Assembly (NCBI GenBank): GCA_002722955.1
Contig: PBMZ01000050.1
Span: forward strand, 1 to 50,523
DNA: 50,523 bases
DNA from: Planctomycetaceae bacterium
Lineage (GTDB): Bacteria; Planctomycetota; Planctomycetia; Planctomycetales; Planctomycetaceae
Direction: 5' to 3'
Below, one piece after another: positions 6,789 through 19,008 of the stretch (the first letter of the stretch is position 1; each line of letters opens with the position of its first letter). The translations under genes were made by a program, and so were the position numbers. The notes beneath the pieces were generated by a model. The model was not told the DNA's origin. It saw nothing but the letters and a program-made list of their open reading frames with translations, and did not search any database.

Positions 6789-7661
6789 ATGTCACCATGG
6801 GTCGCCATTCAGCGGAATCCGTCTTCGGGAGCCGGACCCAAGCGTGATTTGTTGATCCAGCTGATCGACGGTCTGAAGCAGCACAACATCCGAACGCGGC
6901 TGTTTCGCAATCGTGATCGTCTGAAACGCCGACTGGAGAATGCCGAGGCTCGCGAAGCCCTGGTCTGCATTGTTGCCGCCGGTGGTGATGGCACGGTGGC
7001 CGATGTGATCAACCGACATCCAGGCGTTCGGATGACAGTCTTGCCGCTTGGCACTGAAAACCTGCTGTCGAAGTACCTGGGTATTCAAAAATCGGGCAGT
7101 TTCGTCGCCGATATCATTGCCAAGGGCAACGTCCGCAAGCTGGACCTTGCCGAGCTCAACGGTCGCCGATTTTCTCTGATGACAAGCTTCGGAATCGACG
7201 CCGACATCGTTCACAAAACCGACGCACGGCGGAGCGGGCACATCTCAAAGTTGACCTACCTGATGCCGATCCTGGAAAGTCTGAAGGACTACAAATATCC
7301 GCAGTTGAGCTTGTATCTGGACGGCTCCGAAGACCCAGTCACCGCCAAAACCGTCCAAATTGTGAACTTGCCCGCCTATGCACTGGGGATGCCTTTCGCT
7401 CGATCGGCTCGTGGGGACGACGGGCTCTTAGATTTGCGACTGTTCGAACGCGGCTCGCGGTGGAACATGCTCCGATACATCAGCAACATCGTGATGGGTG
7501 GACGGCATGAACGCTTGAGCGACGTTTCTTGTCTGACGGCTGAGCGAATTCGCGTCGAGTCCGAAGTGCCTGTGCCTATTCAAGCTGACGGCGATCCCGC
7601 CGGCTGGACTCCCGCTGAAATCAATGTGTTGCCTGGTGCGCTTGAGGTGATCGTTCCGTAA
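6789..7661 (+). CDS. Diacylglycerol kinase / YegS-like lipid kinase family protein
   Basis: A 290-residue protein of the DAG kinase catalytic family. N-terminal NPSSGAG (residues 10-16) and GGDGTV (residues 65-70) form the nucleotide-binding fold. PLGTENLLSKYLGI replaces the more usual PLGTGND. The C-terminal QADGDPAG phrase is typical of this family. It is expected to phosphorylate a lipid alcohol at the inner face of the membrane with ATP; the substrate cannot be read from the sequence. It follows the PH-domain gene by 14 bp. Confidence 0.85.
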   Translation: MSPWVAIQRNPSSGAGPKRDLLIQLIDGLKQHNIRTRLFRNRDRLKRRLENAEAREALVCIVAAGGDGTVADVINRHPGVRMTVLPLGTENLLSKYLGIQKSGSFVADIIAKGNVRKLDLAELNGRRFSLMTSFGIDADIVHKTDARRSGHISKLTYLMPILESLKDYKYPQLSLYLDGSEDPVTAKTVQIVNLPAYALGMPFARSARGDDGLLDLRLFERGSRWNMLRYISNIVMGGRHERLSDVSCLTAERIRVESEVPVPIQADGDPAGWTPAEINVLPGALEVIVP

Positions 7662-7667
7662 CTCGCT

Positions 7668-8093
7668 TTATGGCAACTTCTGCGGCAAGTTCTCTGTTGA
7701 GTTCTCCGCCGTGCTGAGCAAAGTGTAGTCCTGACCGTCAAGACAATACGTGGCAACCACGACCGGCGATTTTTCATCGTTAAAGGATAGGACGAATTGG
7801 AAGCGTGGGTAGCCTACGGTGTCTGGTTTTGGCTCCACCTCGACATAGGTGCGATGAGCTTGGTTGTCGAACGCGTGAATCTTCCATTCAAGGCCTGTTT
7901 CGTCAGGAAATTCTCCCTCGGCGATTGAGACGATGTTCTCCCGCAAATGCTTTTCCCGTTCCGGTTCCATCTGCTTATTGTTGTTGGCTTGCGGGACCTC
8001 AGAAATTGGATTCGATGTGGTTTGAGTCGATTCTTACTGGCTGCAACCGACACAAATCGCTATGACGATGGCCGGTACGACTGAGAATCTCAT
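7668..8093 (-). pseudogene. Small lipoprotein-like gene interrupted by an in-frame TAA
   Basis: The ATG at 8093 has GGAGA 6 nt upstream and encodes MRFSVVPAIVIAICVGCSQ, a lipoprotein-like leader with a weak lipobox. A TAA at 8034-8036 follows directly. The same frame then stays open for 121 codons to a stop at 7668-7670 and reads like a normal soluble domain (for example HLRENIVSIAEGEF and RFQFVLSFNDEK). I infer one former gene of about 141 codons broken by a single nonsense codon. The alternative is a shorter cytoplasmic protein starting at the Met at 7970, but no ribosome-binding site is seen there and it would lose export. The domain is not recognised. Confidence 0.6.
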
Positions 8094-8641
8094 GAAGTTC
8101 TCCGATGTTAATTGAGTCGACTTAAGATGGTGCGGACACGGGAATGTGAATAGGTTCAACGTTCATACTTTGGCGCAGTTGTCCGCGAAATGTAACGGTC
8201 AGAAATCGCAGAAGTGGGATTTCTCGGACGCTTGAGGAAATCAAATTGGTGTGCCGAGGTAATTCACGAGCTTATTTCAGATTACGTGATTGACTTTCCG
8301 ATCAACCGATGTTACCACTTGGAGCTAAAGCGGATATAAATACAGAGATTCTGTTTCGACAAATGCTACTCATGTTCATTCGGTGACATGTAGCACTAAG
8401 TTTTCACGGCAGATAAAGCGCTAGCTGCCGTGTCTTAGATCGGACGATTTTAGAAAAGGAGCCTCGTCATCCAGCGAAATTCGTTGCTTCCGCAGTAGTT
8501 CAAGAAATAATTGGCTAGCGAGTCACTTACACATCACGATTTACTCATCCGGTGTCTTCTGGACGCCAAGCACTGTGACTTGCGGGCCTGATCTGGCAGA
8601 TCAACAATCGATAGTACCTCTCCTGATGAATTGCCATATCT
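8094..8641. other. Intergenic region upstream of the redox cluster
   Basis: This 548-bp gap has no convincing coding frame. It holds a perfect 8-bp hairpin, CACGGCAG at 8405-8412 and CTGCCGTG at 8425-8432 with a 12-nt loop. The control region of the cytochrome/NuoEFG-like cluster should lie here. I could not identify a specific operator or promoter. Confidence 0.4.
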
Positions 8642-9640
8642 ATGTTAGTCGATCGTAAGAACCTTCGGATGCATCTGTTCTGGATCATCATTTTCGTGGT
8701 AGGGACAGCCGCATCAATCTTTTACTATTATCACGAGTATCAACAGAACGAACGCACGCCCGGTGGTAGTGGCGAGGTTGGTATTGTCCTTGGCGTTTTA
8801 GGCGGGGCAATCATTCTGTTCGAGTTCATGCTGTGGCCACGGCGCTTCCGAAAAGTCCGAGCTTGGCGAATCGGCAAGGCGCAAGCGTGGATGCGGGCTC
8901 ATATCTGGCTGGGATTGCTCACCATCCCCCTCATCTGGCTGCACAGCGACTTTAACTGGGGCGGTCAACTTAGCACCATCCTGGCTTGGCTCTATATCAT
9001 CGTGATCGGCAGCGGCGTCTTCGGGCTGGTGGCTCAGAATGTCATTCCTAAGAACCTCTTGGCGAACGTGCCAGCGGAGACGATCTTCTCGCAAATCGAG
9101 TACGTTTCCGAGGAACTTGCTACTGACGCCGAAAAGTTGGTTTTGGCCGTTTGTGGTCCTGCACCGGATGACTCGGACTTCCAGCCAACGGAAGCAGTCG
9201 CTACAAGCGCCTCGGCCATGCGTCCAGGTCTTGTCGTGCAAGGTTTTCAACGGCCAGTCGGCAACGCGTTCGGACGCGATTTGAGATTTCAGCTCTCAGC
9301 CGATTTAGCGGGAACGCAAATCAATAACCCGGAAGCACTTCGCAATATGTTTTACACCACCATCCGCCCATTCTTGTCGGAAGGTGCTAAATCGACTTCG
9401 CCTTTGAGATATCGTGATCGTTCGTTGGAGCTATTTCGCGAGTTGCGGGCACGCTTGTCCGAGGAAGCTTTTCCAGTCGTTGACGCGATGGAGAGCTGGT
9501 GCGAGCACCGTCGTCAATTTGACCGGCAAGCACGCATGCATCGCATGCTCCACGGATGGTTGGCGATCCACCTGCCGCTTTCGATGGCACTAGTGATATT
9601 GATGTTCGTGCATATCTTTGTGGCTTTGAAGTACTGGTAA
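8642..9640 (+). CDS. Diheme b-type cytochrome membrane subunit with a large soluble insert
   Basis: A 332-residue integral membrane protein. Hydrophobic segments lie at about 11-30, 45-65, 86-104, 111-131 and 306-330. Two His pairs with the spacing expected of bis-His heme b sites are visible: H87/H101 in one helix (RAHIWLGLLTIPLIWLHSDF) and H310/H324 in the last helix, so one or two hemes b are likely. A soluble stretch of about 170 residues (132-305) separates the last two helices. It begins an apparent operon with two multiheme cytochromes c and NuoEF/NuoG-like proteins and is the only obvious place for electrons to cross the membrane. No strong ribosome-binding site precedes the ATG. I recognise the general type but not a named family. 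Confidence 0.75.
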   Translation: MLVDRKNLRMHLFWIIIFVVGTAASIFYYYHEYQQNERTPGGSGEVGIVLGVLGGAIILFEFMLWPRRFRKVRAWRIGKAQAWMRAHIWLGLLTIPLIWLHSDFNWGGQLSTILAWLYIIVIGSGVFGLVAQNVIPKNLLANVPAETIFSQIEYVSEELATDAEKLVLAVCGPAPDDSDFQPTEAVATSASAMRPGLVVQGFQRPVGNAFGRDLRFQLSADLAGTQINNPEALRNMFYTTIRPFLSEGAKSTSPLRYRDRSLELFRELRARLSEEAFPVVDAMESWCEHRRQFDRQARMHRMLHGWLAIHLPLSMALVILMFVHIFVALKYW

Positions 9641-9732
9641 ACAGCGGAAACTTTGTTTGCTTGTCCTTTTGGTATTGAGAACTTGCTCTGCCGAAAGCCA
9701 AGCGATGGACTGATAACACGCGGAGCGTGCGC

Positions 9733-11256
9733 ATGAATCTGAAGATGACCGGTAAGCAGCGTGCTCTGCGCGTGCCGCTAACACACCATCAACGCAAAGA
9801 CGAATTGGTTCGTTCGCGTTTGACATGGACGTTGATAGCCACGGTCCTGGCGGCGGCGTACTTCTTTATTGACCTGATTCCCAACGAGGGTGGCACTGGC
9901 GATGAGCGATATTCGCGAGGGCCGGTGGCGGCTGTTCATGCCACTTGGGAAAAGGAATGCGATGCTTGTCACATCGACTTTGTGCCGATTCGCTCGGACG
10001 CTTGGGCTTCCACCGACGGTTGGTTGGCCTCGCTCTTGCCTGAAACGGCTGGCGATGATCCTGCACGGGCCTCGGACAAGAAATGCATGAGCTGTCATAA
10101 GGGCCCGGCTCATCATAGCAACGAAAAGGCGTCGGACATCCAAAGTTGTGCTCACTGCCATTTGGAGCACAAGGGCCGCGAGTTCGCCTTAGCCCGCACA
10201 GAGGATGCCAAGTGCATCGAGTGCCATAGCGATTTGATTGACCACATCGGCGGGGATTCGATCTATCCCGATGATCCCATCGAGCACGTTGTGCTGAGTT
10301 TTGCCTCGAGCCATCCCAAGTTTCGCTCGATCAAAACGGACCCCGGCAAAATCAAGTTCCCGCACGAGCGTCACTTGACCGCTGGCATTAAGCTTGGCGA
10401 GCGAGACCGCGGTGAGCTGAAGTTGTCAGGCTTGGCGAAACACCACGCGGATCGGTATATGAAAGAAGGACAATCGCCTGACGACGCTGTTCAGCTAGCG
10501 TGTGCCGATTGCCATAAGCTCGATAGCCAAGACCTAAAGGAATCTCTGGGCGACGGTCATCACACTGGCATCTTCCCACTTCGCTCCGGTGGCGAATACA
10601 TGTTGCCGATGAGCTACGAAATGGATTGCCAAGCCTGTCATCCGTTGTCGATTTCTCCAGGCTCAAAGGATCAAGTTCCTCACGGTTTGAAACCGGAAGA
10701 AGTGCTCAGCTTCGTCAAGGATTACTATCTTCGCGAATACTTGAAGAACGATCCCGCGCTTTCCGAACGAGAAGTGCCGCGACGGCGTGTTCCGGGCAAG
10801 ACCGAACTTTCCACGGATAAGATCAAAGCCAACAAGGCGGTCGCGCAGCAAGTGGCCAATGCCGAGAAGCACATTCGCCGCGTCTGTAACGAGTGCCATT
10901 ATTTCGAAAACGAAGAGGCGTCGAAGTTGTCGGCGGTTCAACCTGCCAACATTCCGAAGGTCTGGTTCAAGCATGCCAAGTTTGATCATACGGCTCACCG
11001 TGCGGTCAATTGCCAAGATTGCCACGCAGGTGCCGCGAACTCAAAACGTCACACGGATGTACTGATTCCGGGGCGCAACCTTTGCGTCAAATGCCACTCC
11101 GGCCGAACAGACGATGGAATGCAAGGTGGAGCTCGTTCGGATTGCGTTGAGTGTCATCGTTACCACGGTGGCGACGACCCACTACACGGCATGGGTACCA
11201 AGGATCGTGTTGGTAGCAGCATGCGAAAAGTCGAGGAGTTCTTGAAAGGCGACTGA
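9733..11256 (+). CDS. Decaheme cytochrome c, membrane anchored
   Basis: A 507-residue protein with an N-terminal transmembrane anchor (residues about 31-48) and ten CXXCH heme-c motifs: CDACH 76-80, CMSCH 118-122, CAHCH 139-143, CIECH 161-165, CADCH 257-261, CQACH 299-303, CNECH 385-389, CQDCH 427-431, CVKCH 451-455 and CVECH 471-475. Additional His residues between the motifs could be distal ligands. It should sit on the periplasmic side as an electron wire. An in-frame GTG lies 6 nt upstream, but the ATG at 9733 is preferred because GGAG is 7 nt before it. The downstream cytochrome gene starts 92 bp after the stop. Confidence 0.9.
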   Translation: MNLKMTGKQRALRVPLTHHQRKDELVRSRLTWTLIATVLAAAYFFIDLIPNEGGTGDERYSRGPVAAVHATWEKECDACHIDFVPIRSDAWASTDGWLASLLPETAGDDPARASDKKCMSCHKGPAHHSNEKASDIQSCAHCHLEHKGREFALARTEDAKCIECHSDLIDHIGGDSIYPDDPIEHVVLSFASSHPKFRSIKTDPGKIKFPHERHLTAGIKLGERDRGELKLSGLAKHHADRYMKEGQSPDDAVQLACADCHKLDSQDLKESLGDGHHTGIFPLRSGGEYMLPMSYEMDCQACHPLSISPGSKDQVPHGLKPEEVLSFVKDYYLREYLKNDPALSEREVPRRRVPGKTELSTDKIKANKAVAQQVANAEKHIRRVCNECHYFENEEASKLSAVQPANIPKVWFKHAKFDHTAHRAVNCQDCHAGAANSKRHTDVLIPGRNLCVKCHSGRTDDGMQGGARSDCVECHRYHGGDDPLHGMGTKDRVGSSMRKVEEFLKGD

Positions 11257-11348
11257 ACACGGGGGTGTTGATGTCGTCCCCTGAAAACTATCACCCAGAA
11301 GGCCACAAGGTTCGTCCTTGCGGAATTCATCGGTAAACTAATCGATTC

Positions 11349-12995
11349 ATGAAGCAATTTGTCACAACAGTTATCGTTTTCGCTGGCATCGTCGTGGCTT
11401 CACGATTTTGGTCGGGAAAGGAAAAGGAAGCGGAGCAGCACACAGGCTACAAAGATGCGGGAGTAGCATCGCCGTCGGATCCCGACCCAGAGGAAAGCTT
11501 GCCAGAAATAGTGGGCTCAGCTTACTTGGGTGTTAGCTCGTGTGCGGCGAGCGGTTGCCATGGTGGTCCGATTGAAAGCGATGGAGATCAGAAACGCGGC
11601 ATCTGGAACAGCTCCTATAGTGTCTGGGCCACAAAAGATATTCACGCCGATGCTTACTCAGTACTTTGGAGCGACCGTTCGCGCCAAATCATTAGCTACT
11701 TGACCATGCCGATTTTGCCGACGGAAGAGCAATATGCTCAGCACCAAACGAAGCTGGATGATTCAAAATTCTATTTGACGAAACTAAAGAAATACTGCAC
11801 TTCGTGTCACGCGACATACGATCCCGAACAGAATTCCCCTGATTCTGTCTTGGTGGATGGCGTAAGCTGCGAATCTTGCCACGGAGCCGCTCGCGATTGG
11901 CTGGCCGAGCACACTTCTCTGGACTGGCTGGAATACCCAACTAGCAAGAAATACACGCAGTGGCAATTGAGCGATTCCGACGCCGCATGGTCTAAGTCGG
12001 AGAGCAAGTACAAGATGACCGACACGCGTGATTTGTTGACGCGAGCAAAAGTTTGCTCGGACTGTCACATCGGTTCGCCGGATTCGCAAGGGCGGCCGTG
12101 GCGCGACCTGGATCATAAGATCATGGCGGCCGGCCATCCGCCGTTGGATTTCGAGTTGGCGGCATATATGGAAAACATTCCCAAACACTGGGACGAAGAC
12201 GACGATCATCGCTTCCAAACGAAGGATCGTGGCAAGGACGATAGCAAACGGGCAGAACGGTCGAATTTCCATTCCGAAGTCTGGTCGGTTGGTCAATCAG
12301 TGTCGCTGCTTTCTCGCGTCTTGTTACTTCAATCTCGAGCCCAGGCTGAGGTTGAGGGCATCAAGGAAGAGTGGCCAGAGTTTGCCGAACGTGGGTGCTA
12401 TGAATGTCACCACGCTTTGAAAGCGGACAGCTACCGTCAGCGGAAGATTAGCTTTAAACGTGGCGAGGGTGCTTGGGAGCCTTGGTATACGCCGATGGCG
12501 AAGGCTTTGGCGACGCATCTTGAGATGCCCACAGTTGGGCAGAACATCGCAAAGATTGAAGAGACGATGGGTCCGTGGTGGGGTAAACCTGAAGACGCCA
12601 GCGTTGCGGCTTTGGCAGCGATACCTTCGACTCGACGTATGGTTTCGCAGATTCTGGCCAACCCGGTCGAACCGAGTGGTCTGATGCAGTCCTTGTCAAA
12701 GTTCGATGTGGAAACGACTCGGGTAATTTGGAGCGATGTCGCTCAGTGGTACCTAGCCATCATGTCCACGCACAACGCAATCAAAGCAACACGTGATGAG
12801 AATGATAACGATAAAGCGCTCGCCGCGAAGATGAAGGAACTTGCCGTGTTCCTTGATTTTCCAGCACCTGTATCGGCCGATGATGGAAGCACGGAATCTT
12901 ACGACAGTCCAAGAGATTTCGACCCAACAGTTGAAAGCTTCCAAAGAGTGGTTGGCGAAGTTCGTCAGTTAATGAAGCAAGTTTCCCAACAGTAG
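11349..12995 (+). CDS. Multiheme cytochrome c (c554-like) with one CX4CH and four CXXCH motifs
   Basis: A 548-residue exported protein with an N-terminal hydrophobic anchor (residues 4-18). Four canonical heme-c motifs are seen: CTSCH 150-154, CESCH 174-178, CSDCH 236-240 and CYECH 350-354. A fifth, CAASGCH at 65-71, has four residues between the cysteines. The segment MAAGHPPLDFELAAY (about 259-273) resembles cytochrome c554-type planctomycete proteins. The last 170 residues lack heme motifs. It lies between the decaheme cytochrome and the NuoEF-like gene, with only 16 bp to the latter, which supports one functional unit. Electron transfer in the periplasm is inferred; no catalytic activity can be assigned. 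Confidence 0.85.
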   Translation: MKQFVTTVIVFAGIVVASRFWSGKEKEAEQHTGYKDAGVASPSDPDPEESLPEIVGSAYLGVSSCAASGCHGGPIESDGDQKRGIWNSSYSVWATKDIHADAYSVLWSDRSRQIISYLTMPILPTEEQYAQHQTKLDDSKFYLTKLKKYCTSCHATYDPEQNSPDSVLVDGVSCESCHGAARDWLAEHTSLDWLEYPTSKKYTQWQLSDSDAAWSKSESKYKMTDTRDLLTRAKVCSDCHIGSPDSQGRPWRDLDHKIMAAGHPPLDFELAAYMENIPKHWDEDDDHRFQTKDRGKDDSKRAERSNFHSEVWSVGQSVSLLSRVLLLQSRAQAEVEGIKEEWPEFAERGCYECHHALKADSYRQRKISFKRGEGAWEPWYTPMAKALATHLEMPTVGQNIAKIEETMGPWWGKPEDASVAALAAIPSTRRMVSQILANPVEPSGLMQSLSKFDVETTRVIWSDVAQWYLAIMSTHNAIKATRDENDNDKALAAKMKELAVFLDFPAPVSADDGSTESYDSPRDFDPTVESFQRVVGEVRQLMKQVSQQ

Positions 12996-13011
12996 TGATA
13001 AGCACCTCGAG

Positions 13012-14739
13012 ATGATCGTTCAAGAACTTCATCGAATCCAAAACATTCACGGTTTCCTTCCGGATGATGAACTGAGATCGCTTTCCGATCGAACCGGAAC
13101 GCCGCTTTATCGTTTGGAAGAAGTGTCGAGCTTCTTTCCGCACTTCTTGCGCGAACCGCCACCACAAGTCGAGGTGACCGTTTGCCGAGATATGACTTGT
13201 CATCTGCGCGGCTCCGACCAAATCATCGAAAAGTTGCAAGCGTTGCCCGAGTGCGATGGCAAGCGAATGAGTGCAAACGGAGTTTCTTGTTTGGGACGCT
13301 GCGACCGCGCGCCGGTTACCAGAATCGGCCATCACAACTACATGATTCCGTCAGCGACGGACGTTATCGAATTGGTGCAACAGGTCTTGGCCGGAGGTCA
13401 TCCGCCCGCTGATACCGATGAAGCTTACAACGATCTTTCGACGACTTGGGACATCGACATTTACGACTTGAAACCCGAGTTTCACGCGGTTCGACGCTAC
13501 ATCGAAGCCGAAGATCGTGATGCTGAACGTGACCGAATCATCGGTGCATTAGAAACCGCCAACTTGCTCGGTATGGGCGGTGCCGGTGGACGTGCCTATA
13601 AGAAATGGCGCGACGTCTACAACGCGGTCGGTACGGAAAAATACGTTGTCGTCAATGGTGACGAGAGTGAACCGGGGACGTTCAAAGACCGCGAGTTACT
13701 ACTCCGCACCCCGTACCTAACCCTCGAAGCGGTGATTCTTGCGGGCTTAGTTCTCAGCGGTACGCGAGGTTACATCTACATCCGTCACGAGTTCGAAGAA
13801 CAAATTGACGCCTGCAACCGCGCCATCAAGCAGGCCGAAGAGATGGGATATTGTGGGGAAGACATTCTGGGCTCGGGCATTGATTTCCCGGTCGAAGTCT
13901 TCGCCAGCCCTGGTGGCTACATTTGCGGTGAACAGACCGCCTTGATTGAAGCCATGGAAGATAAGCGTGCGGAGCCGCGGAATCGTCCGCCGGAACTGCA
14001 AACGAATGGCCTCTGGGATAAGCCAACACTTTTGAACAACGTCGAGACGATGGCTTGGGTACCCTCGATCGTTCTGAAGGACAACGGTCAATGGTTCGCC
14101 GATAAGGCCAAGCCTGGCTACAAGGGAAAACGGTTCTTCTCGATCAGTGGTGATTTGGAGAAGCCGGGCCCCTACGAAGTTCCGATTGGCATTACGCTGG
14201 GCGAAATGATCAACGATTACTGCGGCGGCATGAAAGACGGACAAGAGTTGAAAGCGTTCGCGGCTTCAGGTCCGTCAGGCGGTTTCTTGCCGAGGATGTT
14301 GCCGGTCGAGTACTTGGGCAAGCGGTTTGCCGATACCTTGCCCGAAGGAACGACTCACTTCGACATCTTGGATTGGCAGCTGGACATCGGCTTGTCCCGT
14401 CAAATGGGATTGATGATGGGTGCGGGCATGGTCGTCTACGGCGAGAACGCCGATATGGTCGAGCAGGCTTTGGCCTGCCTGAAGTTCTATCGCGCCGAGT
14501 CCTGCGGCAAGTGTGTGCCATGTCGGATCGGATCGCAAAAGCTGGTCGATTTGGGCTCTAGGATTCACGCTAAAGAGTTTGATTCGGGTGCGGTCGATTT
14601 GACAAAGGATTTGGTCGAGGAATTGGCCGAGGTAATGGAGATCACCGCGATCTGCGGTTTGGGAACGGTCGCACCGAATCCACTGCGAACGTTGCTCCGC
14701 CACTTCCCGGAAGAAGTCGAGAAGTACAAGAAGAAGTAA
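13012..14739 (+). CDS. NuoE-NuoF fusion: NADH-oxidising diaphorase subunit
   Basis: A 575-residue protein. Residues 1-130 form a NuoE-like thioredoxin-fold domain with the [2Fe-2S] ligands C58, C63, C93 and C97 (CRDMTC and CLGRC). Residues about 165-570 are NuoF-like: GMGGAGGRAYKKW (187-199) and NGDESEPGTFKDRELL (215-230) for FMN and NADH, GGYICGEQTALIEA, and a [4Fe-4S] site CGKCVPC (C498, C501, C504) with C548. NADH oxidation with transfer through FMN to iron-sulfur clusters is expected. The same fusion type occurs in diaphorase modules of hydrogenases and formate dehydrogenases, but no such catalytic subunit is nearby. The next gene is the matching NuoG-like carrier. Confidence 0.93.
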   Translation: MIVQELHRIQNIHGFLPDDELRSLSDRTGTPLYRLEEVSSFFPHFLREPPPQVEVTVCRDMTCHLRGSDQIIEKLQALPECDGKRMSANGVSCLGRCDRAPVTRIGHHNYMIPSATDVIELVQQVLAGGHPPADTDEAYNDLSTTWDIDIYDLKPEFHAVRRYIEAEDRDAERDRIIGALETANLLGMGGAGGRAYKKWRDVYNAVGTEKYVVVNGDESEPGTFKDRELLLRTPYLTLEAVILAGLVLSGTRGYIYIRHEFEEQIDACNRAIKQAEEMGYCGEDILGSGIDFPVEVFASPGGYICGEQTALIEAMEDKRAEPRNRPPELQTNGLWDKPTLLNNVETMAWVPSIVLKDNGQWFADKAKPGYKGKRFFSISGDLEKPGPYEVPIGITLGEMINDYCGGMKDGQELKAFAASGPSGGFLPRMLPVEYLGKRFADTLPEGTTHFDILDWQLDIGLSRQMGLMMGAGMVVYGENADMVEQALACLKFYRAESCGKCVPCRIGSQKLVDLGSRIHAKEFDSGAVDLTKDLVEELAEVMEITAICGLGTVAPNPLRTLLRHFPEEVEKYKKK

Positions 14740-14806
14740 GACAAATGGATCAAGCCTGTGTCTGCTGAGGATGCGGGCGTGATAACGTGACAACTGGAGA
14801 GTCTCA

Positions 14807-17269
14807 ATGGCCGACGAAGATGCCTTTCTGGATGAAGTAGCACTACTTTGGGAAGAGGAAGGTCTATTTGCTCGTGACGTCGATGGTCAACTCGTGCGCA
14901 TGGAGAAAGCGACCGAGAGTGACTACACGATGGACATTACGATGAAGATCGATGGTCAAGAGATCACGGTCAAGAAAGCGCGTCCATCGACCGACTCTCA
15001 AGGAAACATTCTCTTCGATCAGAACGGTCGGACTGTTCCGCGTTTGACCACAATCTATGACGCCGCTGACGAGCTGTTCGTGAAACAACAAGGCGGCACC
15101 AATCCGATTCCGATCCTTTGCCATCAAGAGCACATGCACCCGGCTGGCGTTTGCCGTGTTTGCTCGGTCGAAGTTTGTCGGATGAAGGGCGACCGCGAAG
15201 TTCCCGGCGGTAAACTTCTTCCCGCGTGCCACCATCCGGTCAAGCCGGACATGATCGTGCACACGATCGATTCTCCGCAGGAGGAAAGCAGTGTTCGGAT
15301 GCGTCGCGCCATTAAGGTCTTGGGCGAGCTGCTTGCATCCGACCACTTGCATAAAGAAGAGAGCAACGGCGTTCCCAACGAATTAGAAGTGCTCACCGAC
15401 CGCATGGGTTGCGAGACAAAACGCTTCACACCGCGCGAACGTCATGACCGTGGCCGCGACAATTCTTCTCAGCTGATTTCCGTCGATCACAATTCGTGCA
15501 TCCTTTGCAATCGTTGCATTAGGGCTTGCACGGAGATTAAAGAGAACAAGGTTATCGGTCGTACAGGCAAGGGCTATACGGCGACAATCGGATTCGACCT
15601 GAACAACAAGATGGCCGATTCCTCTTGCGTGTCCTGTGGTGAGTGCATGGTCTCTTGCCCGACGGATGCGTTGACGTTCCGCAATCCAGTCATCTCTGAC
15701 TGGTACAAAGAGGAACTCAAGGACCCCGCCAACACAGAAGTCACGGTCGAGGAACTCAAGCAGCATCGCTTGTTCAAGGCGATCTCGCATAAATGGTTGC
15801 AGTGGAATGTAGCGTCTGTGATTCGGCGAACCGTCAAGAAAGGCGACGTGCTTTGTCGTCTTGGAGAATACGGTGCGACCGCGTTTATCTTGAACAAAGG
15901 AAGCTTTGGAGTCTGGCTGCAGGATCCGTACGCTGGCCAACTGATCAAAACTCGTAAGAAGCGAAACTTCTTACAGCGATTGTTTGGCGCCAGTCCTCGT
16001 ATCGACAACGACGCGTTGGGACGCGGCAAAGTGCCGCCCGGCGATCCGTTGTTTACGATGACCCCCGAAGACTTGATCGTCGGCGAAATGACGTGCATGA
16101 GCGACCAGCCGCGGACTGGTACGATTGCCGCTATGGAAGATGGTGAGATCTTCGAGATTCGCCGTAACGTGCTTTACGTGCTACAGCGAAACGCGGTCTC
16201 GCGCGAAGAACTTGATTCGGTCTATCGACAACGCGCGTTGTTCTCTCACCTGAAGAAGATTTCGTTGTTCGCGGAATTGTCGAAGGGCGAGCAAGACGAG
16301 TGCGTCAATTACCTGAAGGATCGTGTTGACCTTATTCGCGTTGATCCGGGACAGAACATCTTCAGGCAGGGTGAAGCTGCGACAGACTTTTACATGGTCC
16401 GTTTGGGACACGTCAAAGTGCACCAATCGTTCCTCGGTCAAGAACAAGTCTTGGCCTACCTAAGACCGGACACGCACTTTGGTGAGATTGGCTTGGTCTC
16501 GAACTTCCCCGAGCTGATCGAAGAGCTGCAAAAGCAGGAAGTCCCGGAATATCTATGGCGGCGCCGAACGGCCAGTTGTACAGCCTTGGATGACGTCGAG
16601 TTGGTACGCGTCAAAGGACGCGACTTCTTTGAACTGACCAAGAAATTCCCAGCCCTCAAGGACCGCTTTATCGAGCACTCGCGGCAGATTCTTTCGACGA
16701 ATAAGGAAAAGCGAAAGAAAGTCGATGTGCCGATCGATGAGTTCTTAGACCAGGGCTTGTTCAATGCCCAACGTCTGCTGGTTATCGATCTGGAAGCCTG
16801 CACCCGCTGCGACGAATGTACCCGCGCCTGTGCAGACACGCACGGCGGTGTGACTCGTCTGGTTCGCGATGGCTTGCGATATGACAAGTTCTTGGTGGCC
16901 AGTGCTTGCCGATCATGCACCGACCCGTACTGTTTAGTCGGTTGCCCCGTCGATTCCATTCACCGTGATGATTCGCTGGAAATCATCATCGAAAACCACT
17001 GTATCGGTTGTGGTCAGTGCGCCAACAATTGTCCCTATGGCAATATCAACATGCACGGAATGGATCCGGTGATGCCAACCGTCGAATCAGACGACGGCAA
17101 AAACAAGCATGTTGCCGTCGTTCAGCAAAAGGCGACAACTTGCGACCTATGCCGCAATGTCGTTGGCGAGGGCGAAGATGTTAGCTGTGTCTACGCCTGC
17201 CCTCACAACGCCGCCTTCCGAATGACCGGCCCCGCGCTGTTCGACACCATCAAGGCCAACGCTAATTGA
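14807..17269 (+). CDS. NuoG-like ferredoxin with two cyclic-nucleotide-binding domains and a polyferredoxin tail
   Basis: An 820-residue cytoplasmic protein; GGAGAG precedes the ATG. Residues 45-150 form a [2Fe-2S] domain (C105, C116, C119, C141) as at the NuoG N-terminus. The Cys-rich segment that usually follows in NuoG is degenerate here (only C202). A 2x[4Fe-4S] ferredoxin uses C231/234/237/241 and C274/277/280/284. Two cNMP-binding domains follow, at about 330-465 (GE at 426-427, RT at 436-437) and about 480-630 (GE at 559-560, RT at 587-588). The C-terminus has four more [4Fe-4S] motifs: C665-675, C701-713, C732-742 and C779-798, like DmsB/HycB subunits. There is no molybdopterin domain. 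It probably takes electrons from the NuoEF fusion, with regulation by cAMP, cGMP or a related ligand. Confidence 0.88.
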   Translation: MADEDAFLDEVALLWEEEGLFARDVDGQLVRMEKATESDYTMDITMKIDGQEITVKKARPSTDSQGNILFDQNGRTVPRLTTIYDAADELFVKQQGGTNPIPILCHQEHMHPAGVCRVCSVEVCRMKGDREVPGGKLLPACHHPVKPDMIVHTIDSPQEESSVRMRRAIKVLGELLASDHLHKEESNGVPNELEVLTDRMGCETKRFTPRERHDRGRDNSSQLISVDHNSCILCNRCIRACTEIKENKVIGRTGKGYTATIGFDLNNKMADSSCVSCGECMVSCPTDALTFRNPVISDWYKEELKDPANTEVTVEELKQHRLFKAISHKWLQWNVASVIRRTVKKGDVLCRLGEYGATAFILNKGSFGVWLQDPYAGQLIKTRKKRNFLQRLFGASPRIDNDALGRGKVPPGDPLFTMTPEDLIVGEMTCMSDQPRTGTIAAMEDGEIFEIRRNVLYVLQRNAVSREELDSVYRQRALFSHLKKISLFAELSKGEQDECVNYLKDRVDLIRVDPGQNIFRQGEAATDFYMVRLGHVKVHQSFLGQEQVLAYLRPDTHFGEIGLVSNFPELIEELQKQEVPEYLWRRRTASCTALDDVELVRVKGRDFFELTKKFPALKDRFIEHSRQILSTNKEKRKKVDVPIDEFLDQGLFNAQRLLVIDLEACTRCDECTRACADTHGGVTRLVRDGLRYDKFLVASACRSCTDPYCLVGCPVDSIHRDDSLEIIIENHCIGCGQCANNCPYGNINMHGMDPVMPTVESDDGKNKHVAVVQQKATTCDLCRNVVGEGEDVSCVYACPHNAAFRMTGPALFDTIKANAN

Positions 17270-17331
17270 CGTGGCATTTTCTCTAGCCCCTGCAAGATGA
17301 ACGCGTCTTTTTGTCGCTGACGATTCGCCTC

Positions 17332-18252
17332 TCAATCGTCAAGGCTGCTTTCCATTGTTTCCGTTCGTGTTGGTGTCGTGAGCTCGAAACGAATATACGT
17401 TTCTTTAAGGCGGTCCACGGCGTCCAGAGGGGCGCTGCCGAATCGGTGGCGGTATGTCACGTTGAGCTGGTATTTTCCCGCTTTGTCCGCAGGGTGCTTG
17501 CGAGTCCACGATCCGGGCAGCGGTTGATTGAGCGAGATCGGAAGCCGGTTGAACACCATTGTTTGACCAGGAGCTAGCACTTCGTAATCGTCTTAGCCGA
17601 TTCCAGATATTCGTCGACGCGGGTATGCGTCTGAGAGTGAAACGCGTTTGCCTCCTGGACCATATAGCGTCATTTTCAGGCACAACAGCGGGAGCTTGCG
17701 ATAGACCTTGATCGGCTGTTTTGAGCGATTCTCGACCGCAATTTCGATTTCTCACGCTTGATTTCTCTTAGACGAATCCGCACGTCGCGAAATTCGTGCC
17801 GACTCGCGGATCTTCTTTAGCATAGGAAGCAGCTGGCGATCGATTTCATCATCACCGGTAGACACAACACTTGCATTTAGCGGTGACTTGAGCGACGAGT
17901 AGTAGACCTCCAGTGTCCGACGTCCTTTTTCTTCGTAGATGTCGATGAACCAATGTCTCGAGCTTGAGTCAAAATCACCGAACGTATCGTTCTTGGCTTG
18001 GAAGCGTTGCAGAAGATCACGAAGCTCAGTGATGTCGCTCGCGTTCCGAACGAGGGCGCGGACACGACCTTGTGGGTGAATGCCCTTTGGCGAATAGACA
18101 AGATCCACGGCGATTGGTTGTCCAATGTTCAATGCATCCTACAAGTTCGCAGGTTTGGGTTTACTCGTGGATTCTTTGGGCTCAGTAAAGACTTGACTGG
18201 CAATTGTCGAGATGAGCACAACCGCGAGCAGCGCGCAAAGTTCTGTCTTCAC
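17332..18252 (-). pseudogene. Secreted protein gene broken by three in-frame stop codons
   Basis: One minus-strand frame from a GTG at 18252 (AGGGG about 8 nt upstream) encodes a signal peptide (VKTELCALLAVVLISTIASQ) and continues in the same frame to the stop at 17332-17334. It is interrupted by TAG at 18139-18141, TGA at 17752-17754 and TAA at 17593-17595. Sequence after each stop still looks like protein: GQPIAVDLVYSPKG, then ENRSKQPIKVYRKLP and LYGPGGKRVSLS, then VLAPGQTMVFNRLP and AGKYQLNVTYRHR. The last parts resemble a BsuPI/Ig-like beta domain. No frameshift is needed. A recently decayed gene of about 307 codons is the simplest reading. TTG-initiated fragments such as the one from 18132 could still be translated. 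Confidence 0.7.
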
Positions 18253-18331
18253 CGAAAGGACCCCTGCAATTGTTTGAATTGTTGTAGGTGAAGACGTGCT
18301 CGACTCACAAAGAGTTCCCACAAAGAAAGGA

Positions 18332-18364
18332 AAAGAGTCGGTCAGGATGTCTGACCGACTCTTT
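18332..18364 (-). terminator. Strong intrinsic terminator of the PEP-CTERM gene
   Basis: A perfect 14-bp stem (18332-18345 with 18351-18364) with a 5-nt loop. Read on the minus strand it is followed by a T-rich run. It lies 35 bp beyond the stop codon of the PEP-CTERM gene. Confidence 0.9.
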
Positions 18365-18399
18365 CTGGGGTATTTCGCATTCTTAGGTGCAACAGAGTT

Positions 18400-19008
18400 T
18401 TATGTCGTCGGCTCAGAATCTGCCTGAGCGTTCTTGCGTCGGCGATGGCAAACGGCGAACGCGACACCGATTCCGGCGAGGGCTAATCCAGAGGGCTCTG
18501 GTACGACAGGCGGATGATCGTCACATGGCTTTGGCTCGTGAGTGTACGTGATGATTTGACCGTTGAAGTCGAGCTTAACGGCGAATGGGCCGCAATTGAG
18601 CTGATGGATTACCTCGGCGAAGTCGACCCCGTCGGCGTTTTGTCGCCAAACATAGACACGTTCGCCCTTGTCCAAACCAAACTTGACATTACTTGTCACC
18701 GCTTCATGAGCGTTAGTCATCGTAAAGTACGTGCCATGTGTTTGCGTGTAGTTGTAGACATGGAATCTGGTGTCGTTGAACAGGTCATCGTCACAGAAAT
18801 AAATCCGCGTGACCGTGCCGGCATTGCTGTTGTTGCGAACGTGGAACCCGGTGTATTGATCACGGTAGTTGATGACTTCCATTTGAATGGAAGCACCACC
18901 CTTGCCAGTGAAATCATAAATGTCCGGATAGTATCCGAACCCAGCCTCGGCTTCGTCGTGCACAAAACACAACGAGAGTACGGCGAGCGTAGCGAATGCG
19001 TATCGCAT
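18400..19008 (-). CDS. PEP-CTERM sorted exported protein
   Basis: A 202-residue protein with an N-terminal signal peptide (cleavage near residue 22) and a C-terminal PEP-CTERM tripartite signal: VPEPSGLALA, a hydrophobic helix, then the basic CHRRRKN. The mature part is rich in aromatic residues and Asn (DIYDFTGKGG, YNYTQTHGTYFTM) and is of unknown function. PEP-CTERM proteins are processed by an exosortase and delivered to the envelope; no exosortase gene is in the window. It is isolated, with its own terminator, between two decayed genes. Confidence 0.85.
   Translation of the reverse strand: MRYAFATLAVLSLCFVHDEAEAGFGYYPDIYDFTGKGGASIQMEVINYRDQYTGFHVRNNSNAGTVTRIYFCDDDLFNDTRFHVYNYTQTHGTYFTMTNAHEAVTSNVKFGLDKGERVYVWRQNADGVDFAEVIHQLNCGPFAVKLDFNGQIITYTHEPKPCDDHPPVVPEPSGLALAGIGVAFAVCHRRRKNAQADSEPTT

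What the first reader, a model, noticed from the sequence alone, without database searches (positions are those of the whole stretch)
8642..17269. Candidate undescribed NADH-to-periplasm electron transfer system
Seen in sequence: five consecutive same-strand genes encode a diheme cytochrome b, a decaheme cytochrome c, a cytochrome c with five heme motifs, a NuoE-NuoF fusion and a NuoG-like polyferredoxin with two cNMP-binding domains. Established knowledge: NuoE/F modules oxidise NADH and pass electrons to NuoG-type clusters; multiheme cytochromes carry electrons in the periplasm. Inference: this is a stand-alone NADH:cytochrome c or quinone-linked complex that crosses the membrane by heme b, gated by a cyclic nucleotide. 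No hydrogenase, formate dehydrogenase, molybdopterin or Nuo membrane subunits are in the cluster.
Basis: partly seen in the sequence, partly recalled or inferred. Interest (0 to 1): 0.85.

Follow-up and report, generated by a model that had tools for sequence, protein, structure and literature searches.

The report
Signal-gated NADH-to-periplasm electron exporter
A bacterium, likely a planctomycete, carries five adjacent genes, kept together in many relatives, that likely form one membrane complex predicted to take electrons from NADH inside the cell and pass them through two b-type hemes to multiheme cytochromes outside the inner membrane, with two built-in sensor domains that would let a cyclic nucleotide switch the flow on or off.

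Summary
The set is conserved: of 80 loci found through A, 45 hold D and E, and 40 of those 45 keep the order A-B-(C)-D-E with no gap above 285 bp. Cofactor ligands are nearly invariant: 28 Fe-S cysteines of E in 45 of 45, four heme-b histidines of A in 73-74 of 74. A short form (cNMP + 4x[4Fe-4S] ferredoxin, A, B, no NuoEF) occurs in the same genome and elsewhere, sometimes with FHA domains or a flavoprotein. So the core looks like a regulated transmembrane electron conduit with exchangeable inputs; the window has its NADH form. Likely path: NADH > FMN > Fe-S > two hemes b > decaheme > pentaheme, outward with the membrane field. The cNMP-contact Glu and Arg are kept, so gating is plausible but untested; the acceptor is unknown. 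Linkage is not universal. Ten literature searches listed no description.

The parts
8642..9640 (+). A: diheme-type cytochrome b, 332 aa; predicted 5 TM helices with a ~170-residue cytosolic loop (res. 132-300); likely heme ligands His87/His101 and His310/His324
   Evidence: hydropathy gives 4 segments, the third helix (80-101) comes from the model; topology by positive-inside inference
9727..11256 (+). B: decaheme cytochrome c, 509 aa, ten CXXCH, N-terminal TM anchor (res. 33-51) after a basic N-terminus
   Evidence: 10 CXXCH in 66 of 71 relatives
11349..12995 (+). C: pentaheme cytochrome (CX4CH + 4 CXXCH), 548 aa, N-terminal hydrophobic segment
   Evidence: the five motif positions are kept in 41 of 41 sequences, the first as CX4CH in 38 of 40 relatives
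11511..12215 (+). C residues 55-289: cytochrome c554-like part
12252..12992 (+). C residues 302-548: helical bundle resembling periplasmic iron-binding EfeO/EfeM/Algp7, with heme 5 in it; the HxxE motif (recalled) is not conserved
13012..14739 (+). D: NuoE-NuoF fusion, 575 aa
13015..13404 (+). D residues 2-131: NuoE-like [2Fe-2S] domain, Cys58/63/93/97
   Evidence: PF01257 76.4 bits; four Cys in 47 of 47
13519..14727 (+). D residues 170-572: NuoF-like FMN/NADH domain with Cys498/501/504/548 for an N3-type [4Fe-4S]
   Evidence: PF01512 and PF10589; Cys in 46 of 47, with 1 gap
14807..17269 (+). E: NuoG-type Fe-S head, two cNMP-binding domains and a four-cluster ferredoxin in one 820-aa protein
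14999..15721 (+). E residues 65-305: [2Fe-2S] (Cys105/116/119/141) and two [4Fe-4S] (Cys231-241, 274-284); no N5-type cysteine triplet
   Evidence: 12 Cys in 45 of 45; Cys list
15809..16246 (+). E approx. residues 335-480: cNMP domain 1, Glu427 and Arg436
   Evidence: PF00027, 2 stretches, 89.4 bits against a cut-off of 27.5; Glu427 in 44 of 45, Arg436 in 45 of 45
16259..16666 (+). E approx. residues 485-620: cNMP domain 2, Glu560 and Arg587 with an insertion between them
   Evidence: Glu560 and Arg587 in 45 of 45
16769..17221 (+). E residues 655-805: HycB/DmsB-type domain, four [4Fe-4S] (16 Cys)
   Evidence: each of the 16 Cys in 45 of 45

Best explanation
The five genes likely encode one membrane complex that is predicted to oxidise NADH in the cytosol and export the electrons across the inner membrane to periplasmic multiheme cytochromes, and its two cNMP-binding domains would gate that flow. 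Predicted path: NADH > FMN in D > [4Fe-4S] of D > [2Fe-2S] and two [4Fe-4S] in the head of E > the four [4Fe-4S] of the E tail > heme b on the cytosolic side of A (His87/His310) > heme b on the periplasmic side (His101/His324) > the ten hemes of B > the five hemes of C > an unknown acceptor. Shown from sequence: the genes, the cofactor motifs and their near-invariance, the conserved order, co-variation, and a sister form without NuoEF that has the same ferredoxin-cytochrome b-decaheme core. Inferred: complex formation, direction, the heme pairing in A, and topology. Electrons moving outward go with the inside-negative field, so the step should need no ion pump and could deliver low-potential electrons to the periplasm, in the manner of an NADPH oxidase or ferric reductase but built from the complex I N-module. 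Inferred and weaker: that cyclic AMP or GMP bound between the Fe-S head and the Fe-S tail of E opens or closes the wire.
For: Order A-B-(C)-D-E in 40 of 45 loci that hold D and E (18 with C between B and D, 21 without, 1 with B in two frames), largest gap in any of the 40 being 285 bp, out of 80 loci found through A. Where E keeps the NuoG head, D is in the locus in 44 of 44; where E is the short form, in 0 of 9: head and NuoEF come and go together. A, B, D and E distances correlate at 0.89-0.93 over 42 loci, 0 of 500 permutations as high (this does not separate linkage from a shared species tree). 28 Fe-S Cys of E in 45 of 45; D clusters in 46-47 of 47; A His87/101/310/324 in 73, 73, 73 and 74 of 74; C's five motif positions in 41 of 41; ten CXXCH of B in 66 of 71. 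The only His of A invariant in 23 divergent sequences (20-38% identity to the window) are the two HX13H pairs. B and C are fused in one relative, L050, 14 CXXCH + 1 CX4CH. Phylum survey: 15 of 199 genomes have a strong A (E <= 1e-24), and all 15 have E at 1e-40 or better. cNMP contact residues Glu427 and Arg436 nine apart, Glu560 and Arg587 also kept; the genome has four PF00211 cyclase-domain hits over cut-off.
Against: Of 8 surveyed genomes with a NuoG-headed E, G056 and G171 have it about 720 kb from A and G003 about 15 kb; G058 has a second, solitary E (L117), and short E genes stand alone in L115 and L116. Among the 45 loci, in 2 D-E precedes A-B, in 2 D-E is on the other strand after A-B-C, and in 1 on the other strand after A. 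Nine of the 50 A loci with >= 6 kb left and >= 7.5 kb right flank have B but neither D nor E in range, and two more have none of B, D, E. The set is patchy: 26 of 59 near relatives match E at 1e-30, many through one part of E only. E lacks the N5-type cysteine triplet of NuoG, so cluster spacing in the head is untested. The A model is middling (pLDDT 75.5, pTM 0.64) and matches no solved fold. No terminal acceptor is found: no MtrB/PioB hit and no NrfA hit over cut-off in a genome 79% complete. Domain 2 has an insertion between its contact residues. No activity, redox potential or ligand was measured.
Confidence: 0.7

Rival explanations
1. Quinone-linked version: A exchanges electrons with menaquinone, so the complex is an uncoupled NADH:quinone reductase, or links the quinone pool with B and C.
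For: Many diheme cytochromes b of the b561 kind handle quinones (general knowledge); 9 of 23 members of the divergent A alignment hit PF01292 at E up to 0.1.
Against: A multiheme ORF is the most constant neighbour of A (74 of 80 loci) and lies beside it in long-form and short-form loci alike. Apart from the four His and W83/W306, the invariant residues are Gly and Pro, with no obvious quinone site. Quinone binding could not be tested.
Confidence: 0.17
2. Reverse direction: periplasmic cytochromes feed electrons inward to reduce NAD+ for biosynthesis.
For: NuoEF modules are reversible (general knowledge); some distant A-B loci carry record titles from Betaproteobacteria, Rhodocyclaceae and Thiomargarita (L085, L086, L088, L089; titles are not verified taxonomy), groups that include metal and sulfur oxidisers.
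Against: Inward electron transfer runs against the membrane field and no coupling site is seen in A; hosts of the NADH form are mostly titled as planctomycetes, which are chiefly heterotrophs (general knowledge).
Confidence: 0.08
3. The cNMP domains no longer bind a nucleotide; they are spacers or dimerisation domains between two Fe-S blocks, and there is no gating.
For: Domain 2 has an insertion between its Glu and Arg; domain 1 carries two near-invariant Cys (350, 430) not expected of a plain cAMP site; in some relatives FHA domains are added, so interaction domains are readily recruited here.
Against: Glu427, Arg436, Glu560 and Arg587 are kept in 44-45 of 45; a spacer would not need them. 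The family score is far over cut-off.
Confidence: 0.4
4. D-E is an NADH module for another enzyme such as formate dehydrogenase, and A-B-C is an independent cytochrome system that only happens to be next to it.
For: D-E and A-B are unlinked in some genomes; the same genome has a NuoG-headed formate-dehydrogenase-like protein on C11 and a lone NuoEF fusion on C115.
Against: E carries the same cNMP + four-cluster block that sits beside A-B in loci with no NuoEF, and the order is kept in 40 of 45 loci.
Confidence: 0.06

Closest known systems
Complex I N-module (NuoE, NuoF, NuoG N-terminus) and its re-used forms (HoxFU, HydABC, NAD-dependent formate dehydrogenase)
   Same: NuoE-NuoF and the NuoG-type [2Fe-2S]/2x[4Fe-4S] head; best solved matches are formate dehydrogenase beta and HydB for D, HydA and formate dehydrogenase alpha for E
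   Different: No catalytic molybdopterin or H-cluster domain and no quinone module; the N5-type Cys triplet is missing; the likely output is a cytochrome b
Ferric reductase / NADPH oxidase (FRD) membrane domains
   Same: Cytosolic NAD(P)H and two b hemes across the membrane with HX13H-like pairs in two TM helices (NOX arrangement recalled); 11 of 23 members of the divergent A alignment touch PF01794 at E up to 0.1
   Different: Input is a NuoEF/Fe-S chain, not a fused FAD domain; output is multiheme c; the window's A itself has no PF01794 hit
FdnGHI / DmsABC / HycB-type ferredoxin plus membrane subunit
   Same: Four-cluster ferredoxin handing electrons to or from a membrane subunit (E tail)
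   Different: No molybdoenzyme; sensor domains precede the ferredoxin; electrons would leave the cytosol
Inner-membrane cytochromes of extracellular electron transfer (CbcL, CbcBA, CymA; recalled; PMC9129911 seen in a search listing only)
   Same: Inner-membrane cytochromes handing electrons to multiheme cytochromes
   Different: Those take quinol electrons; this set starts from NADH and carries regulatory domains
Alternative complex III and the NrfD-type clusters of Planctomycetota (PMC10732223, section 10 read)
   Same: Pentaheme c plus Fe-S proteins in planctomycete genomes; two of our loci bear the isolate prefix OFTM of that study (L015, L045)
   Different: No NrfD, ActD or ActB-type domain in A-E; that section describes a different six-gene set

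Membership tests
Complex I (NDH-1) | NuoE-, NuoF- and NuoG-N-terminal-type domains | tested here: met
   Pfam domains over cut-off in D; NCBIfam equivalog cut-offs not reached; PDB matches
Complex I (NDH-1) | quinone module and proton-pumping arm with the N-module | tested here: not met
   no such domain in A-E; PF00361 genes lie on other contigs, e.g. C56
NAD-dependent formate dehydrogenase / HydABC hydrogenase | catalytic molybdopterin or H-cluster/NiFe subunit | tested here: not met
   no such domain in A-E; the FeFe-hydrogenase model hits in E cover only its Fe-S parts
Ferric reductase / NADPH oxidase (FRD) | two pairs of His in two TM helices binding two hemes | tested here: met
   HX13H twice, invariant in 23 of 23 sequences; heme binding itself not measured
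Ferric reductase / NADPH oxidase (FRD) | PF01794 over its cut-off | tested here: inconclusive
   window A: no hit; 11 of 23 members at E <= 0.1, best 2.5e-5; L087: 20.4 bits against a cut-off of 28
Ferric reductase / NADPH oxidase (FRD) | FAD/NAD(P)H domain on the same chain | tested here: not met
   A is 332 aa with no such domain
Cyclic nucleotide-binding domains (PF00027) | family score over cut-off and conserved Glu/Arg of the phosphate-binding cassette (residues recalled) | tested here: met
   89.4 bits against 27.5; Glu/Arg in 44-45 of 45
Cyclic nucleotide-binding domains (PF00027) | binds cAMP or cGMP | not testable with these tools
   needs a binding assay
Cytochrome c554 family (PF13435) | family score over cut-off | tested here: met
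   C 34.8 bits against 20.8
Alternative complex III | NrfD-type membrane subunits and ActB | tested here: not met
   no such family in A-E; B has one weak match to ActA, E 8.8e-4
EfeO/EfeM iron-binding proteins | helical bundle fold of the M75 type | tested here: inconclusive
EfeO/EfeM iron-binding proteins | HxxE metal motif (recalled) | tested here: not met
   no conserved HxxE in the second half of 23 C homologues
Quinol-dependent EET cytochromes (CbcL, CymA) | quinol oxidation site | not tested
   no reference sequences compared

The most novel reading that the evidence does not exclude
A new class of signal-gated trans-membrane electron exporters: a constant core of a sensor ferredoxin (cNMP, sometimes FHA), a diheme cytochrome b and a membrane decaheme cytochrome, onto which bacteria plug different cytosolic inputs (NuoEF/NuoG for NADH in planctomycetes, a pyridine-nucleotide flavoprotein elsewhere). 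Second messengers or protein phosphorylation would act directly on the wire between two Fe-S blocks, so the cell could switch NADH-powered reduction of its periplasm on demand.
Probability: 0.4. Interest if true: 0.88.

Novelty: new variant of a known kind. Interest (0 to 1): 0.76.

Why it matters
If true, electrons from NADH would reach periplasmic cytochromes directly, without the quinone pool, and would explain what some of the many multiheme cytochromes of planctomycetes are for. If the cNMP domains gate it, a second messenger would act on the electron path itself rather than on transcription. The wider family gives a ready comparison set: the same core with and without the NADH module, even inside one genome.

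Tried and rejected
Chance neighbourhood: rejected by 40 of 45 conserved loci. Plasmid cargo: tblastn of A against 72,556 plasmid records gave no match. RNA element: no Rfam family at gathering score in 7500-18500; promoter-like sites 2 against 6.6 expected and terminator-like 11 against 11.6 expected from shuffles, so nothing is claimed. Solved relatives of A: no credible profile match and none by fold with the middling model; the absence is only told, not used. NADPH use from NuoF Gln308: the 47 sequences have Gln 29, Glu 17, Ala 1, so no claim. EfeO-type iron binding in C: fold similar, motif not conserved. Porin-cytochrome conduit or NrfA as acceptor: no MtrB/PioB hit; one NrfA-family hit below cut-off (23.2 against 24.1 bits); the porin model also fails to score over cut-off in all 14 control genomes, so that test is weak.

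Other survey results: A at E <= 0.001 matches 55 of 199 genomes, 40 of them weaker than 1e-24. E at 1e-40 matches 33 of 199; of the 18 beyond the 15 with a strong A, 7 match only through the NuoG head and 11 only through the cNMP/tail part; three of those 11 were opened (L113, L119, L120) and each has an A relative and a ten-CXXCH ORF beside E.

Literature: ten searches of the open-licence library; several listings were capped (12 of 117; 10 of 295; 20 of 33; 10 of 13). None of the papers listed was seen to describe this set; subscription papers are mostly not held. Looked into: PMC10732223 (passages and section 10), PMC10734462 (passages; its table lists a ten-heme 'Forkhead-associated protein' in 27 iron-oxidiser genomes, perhaps a relative of FHA-carrying B proteins, not tested), PMC5317091 (passages). 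All others were seen in listings only.

Rows dropped or capped before counts: one search found 84 relatives by pattern and kept 80. In one search proteins under a coverage floor were left out (A 73, B 71, C 40, D 46, E 44 of 80 loci kept, plus the window). One search's flank filter kept 50 of 80. One search ignored hits under 45 bits and counts 45 loci because it includes L054, whose E is cut by the contig end; one search counts 44. In one search the six loci without an adjacent multiheme ORF are L036 (overlapping ORF start; a ten-CXXCH ORF is there), L067, L078, L083 (contig ends within 500 bp), L073 and L088.


Full report
What is there. Five + strand ORFs fill 8642-17269 with gaps of 86, 92, 16 and 67 bp. 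A is a small membrane protein with no Pfam or NCBIfam match and no credible PDB sequence match. Its alignment shows two HX13H pairs, His87/His101 and His310/His324, invariant in 17 of 17 homologues; in 23 divergent sequences, 20-38% identical to the window's, they are the only invariant histidines. The model has helices at 5-36, 45-63, 80-101 and 108-139 and a long one at 274-330; hydropathy alone gives four segments, 10-28, 46-64, 113-131 and 311-329. By the positive-inside rule the loop 132-300 is cytosolic and would face E (inference). B has one N-terminal hydrophobic helix after a basic stretch and ten CXXCH. C has a CX4CH and four CXXCH.

Anatomy of the electron path. D has the NuoE-type [2Fe-2S] cysteines (47 of 47 sequences), the NuoF-type glycines and the four cysteines of an N3-type cluster (46 of 47). 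E has a NuoG-type head with one [2Fe-2S] and two [4Fe-4S] sites, two cNMP domains, and a tail with four [4Fe-4S] sites of the HycB/DmsB kind. All 28 cysteines are kept in 45 of 45 sequences. The head lacks the cysteine triplet of the N5 cluster. Counted from motifs, the set would carry FMN, nine Fe-S clusters, two b hemes and fifteen c hemes.

Conservation of the set. A pattern scan of one genome for each of 84,980 species with the A alignment found 84 relatives and kept 80 loci. 74 of 80 have an adjacent multiheme ORF. 45 hold both D and E; 40 of these 45 have A-B-(C)-D-E in order on one strand, and in all 40 the largest gap is 285 bp or less. Where E keeps the NuoG head, D is in the locus in 44 of 44; where E is the short form, in 0 of 9. 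Distances among A, B, D and E correlate at 0.89-0.93 in 42 loci, which does not by itself separate linkage from shared ancestry. In an even sample of 199 genomes of the phylum, 15 have a strong A (E <= 1e-24) and all 15 have E at 1e-40 or better.

Results against tight linkage. Eight of the 199 genomes have a NuoG-headed E; in G056 and G171 it lies about 720 kb from A and in G003 about 15 kb. G058 has a second, solitary E (L117), and short E genes stand alone in L115 and L116. Nine of 50 well-flanked A loci have B without D or E in range, and two have none of the three. Among 59 near relatives of the window's genome, 26 match E at 1e-30 or better, many only through one part of E, so the set is patchy within its family.

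A wider family. The window's genome has a second copy of the core on contig C11: a cNMP + four-cluster ferredoxin of 765 aa, an A with a large low-complexity insertion, a ten-CXXCH B, a C and a second, five-CXXCH C-like protein, with no NuoEF. Similar short forms lie in loci titled Wallbacteria (L058, L069), Acidobacteria (L077), Deltaproteobacteria (L055) and others; record titles are not verified taxonomy. Of ten short E proteins that I chose for a Pfam scan, four carry a fused FHA domain (L055, L077, L091, L119). Of three B proteins scanned, two carry FHA (L091, L084) and one does not (L087). In L084 the ferredoxin is fused to a pyridine-nucleotide-disulphide oxidoreductase. Multiheme proteins of about 1200-1400 aa with 8-10 CXXCH lie near several core loci. 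My reading is that ferredoxin-A-B is the constant core and NuoEF/NuoG one exchangeable input.

Regulation. In domain 1 Glu427 and Arg436 are nine residues apart, as I recall for the cAMP sites of protein kinase A, whose regulatory subunits align with E 425-570. Both domains keep Glu and Arg in 44-45 of 45. The genome has four cyclase-domain (PF00211) hits over cut-off. So ligand binding is plausible; gating is inference. Two cysteines, 350 and 430, are also near-invariant in domain 1 (45 and 44 of 45) and unexplained.

Other NADH use. PF00361 (proton-antiporter family) hits, three of the stronger ones clustered on contig C56, are consistent with a complex I elsewhere in the genome, though I did not type the genes.

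Verdict. Its predicted logic is that of an NADPH oxidase or ferric reductase, but it is not filed as a member: the flavin module is NuoEF-type and the outlet is multiheme c. Direction, complex formation and gating need the bench.

Noticed in passing
L090:1369-11483 (G000 contig C11): Second core set in the same genome without NuoEF; its A-like protein (741 aa) has a ~370-residue K/A/P-rich insertion in the loop. A NuoG-headed, formate-dehydrogenase-like protein lies 3.7 kb downstream (15145-18066).
   Followed up: partly
L111:9396-11018 (G000 contig C115): A lone NuoE-NuoF fusion, 42% identical to D, with no A, B, C or E relative detected in the 19 kb fetched around it.
   Followed up: partly
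window 15854-15856 and 16094-16096 (E Cys350, Cys430): Two near-invariant cysteines inside cNMP domain 1 (45 and 44 of 45), not expected of a cAMP site; perhaps a redox switch.
   Followed up: no
L055:2587-6504, L087:16543-20433, L084:17112-20771 and others: Proteins of ~1200-1400 aa with 8-10 CXXCH and C-terminal repeats that look like LVIVD propeller repeats (recalled, no family search), near core loci.
   Followed up: no
L050:10984-13587: B and C fused into one protein with 14 CXXCH and 1 CX4CH.
   Followed up: yes
L084:7557-13232: Pyridine-nucleotide-disulphide oxidoreductase fused to two cNMP domains and a ferredoxin tail, next to A and a B with two FHA stretches.
   Followed up: partly
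L045:11009-18707: Beside A (OFTM393 contig) lie a 12-CXXCH ORF instead of a recognisable B, and a 17-CXXCH ORF.
   Followed up: no
window 18400-19008: Minus-strand protein with a PEP-CTERM sorting signal (22 bits, cut-off 20.7).
   Followed up: no
window 13933-13935 (D Gln308): The second Glu of the NuoF GEET motif (recalled) is Gln here and in 29 of 47 sequences; may affect NADH/NADPH choice.
   Followed up: no
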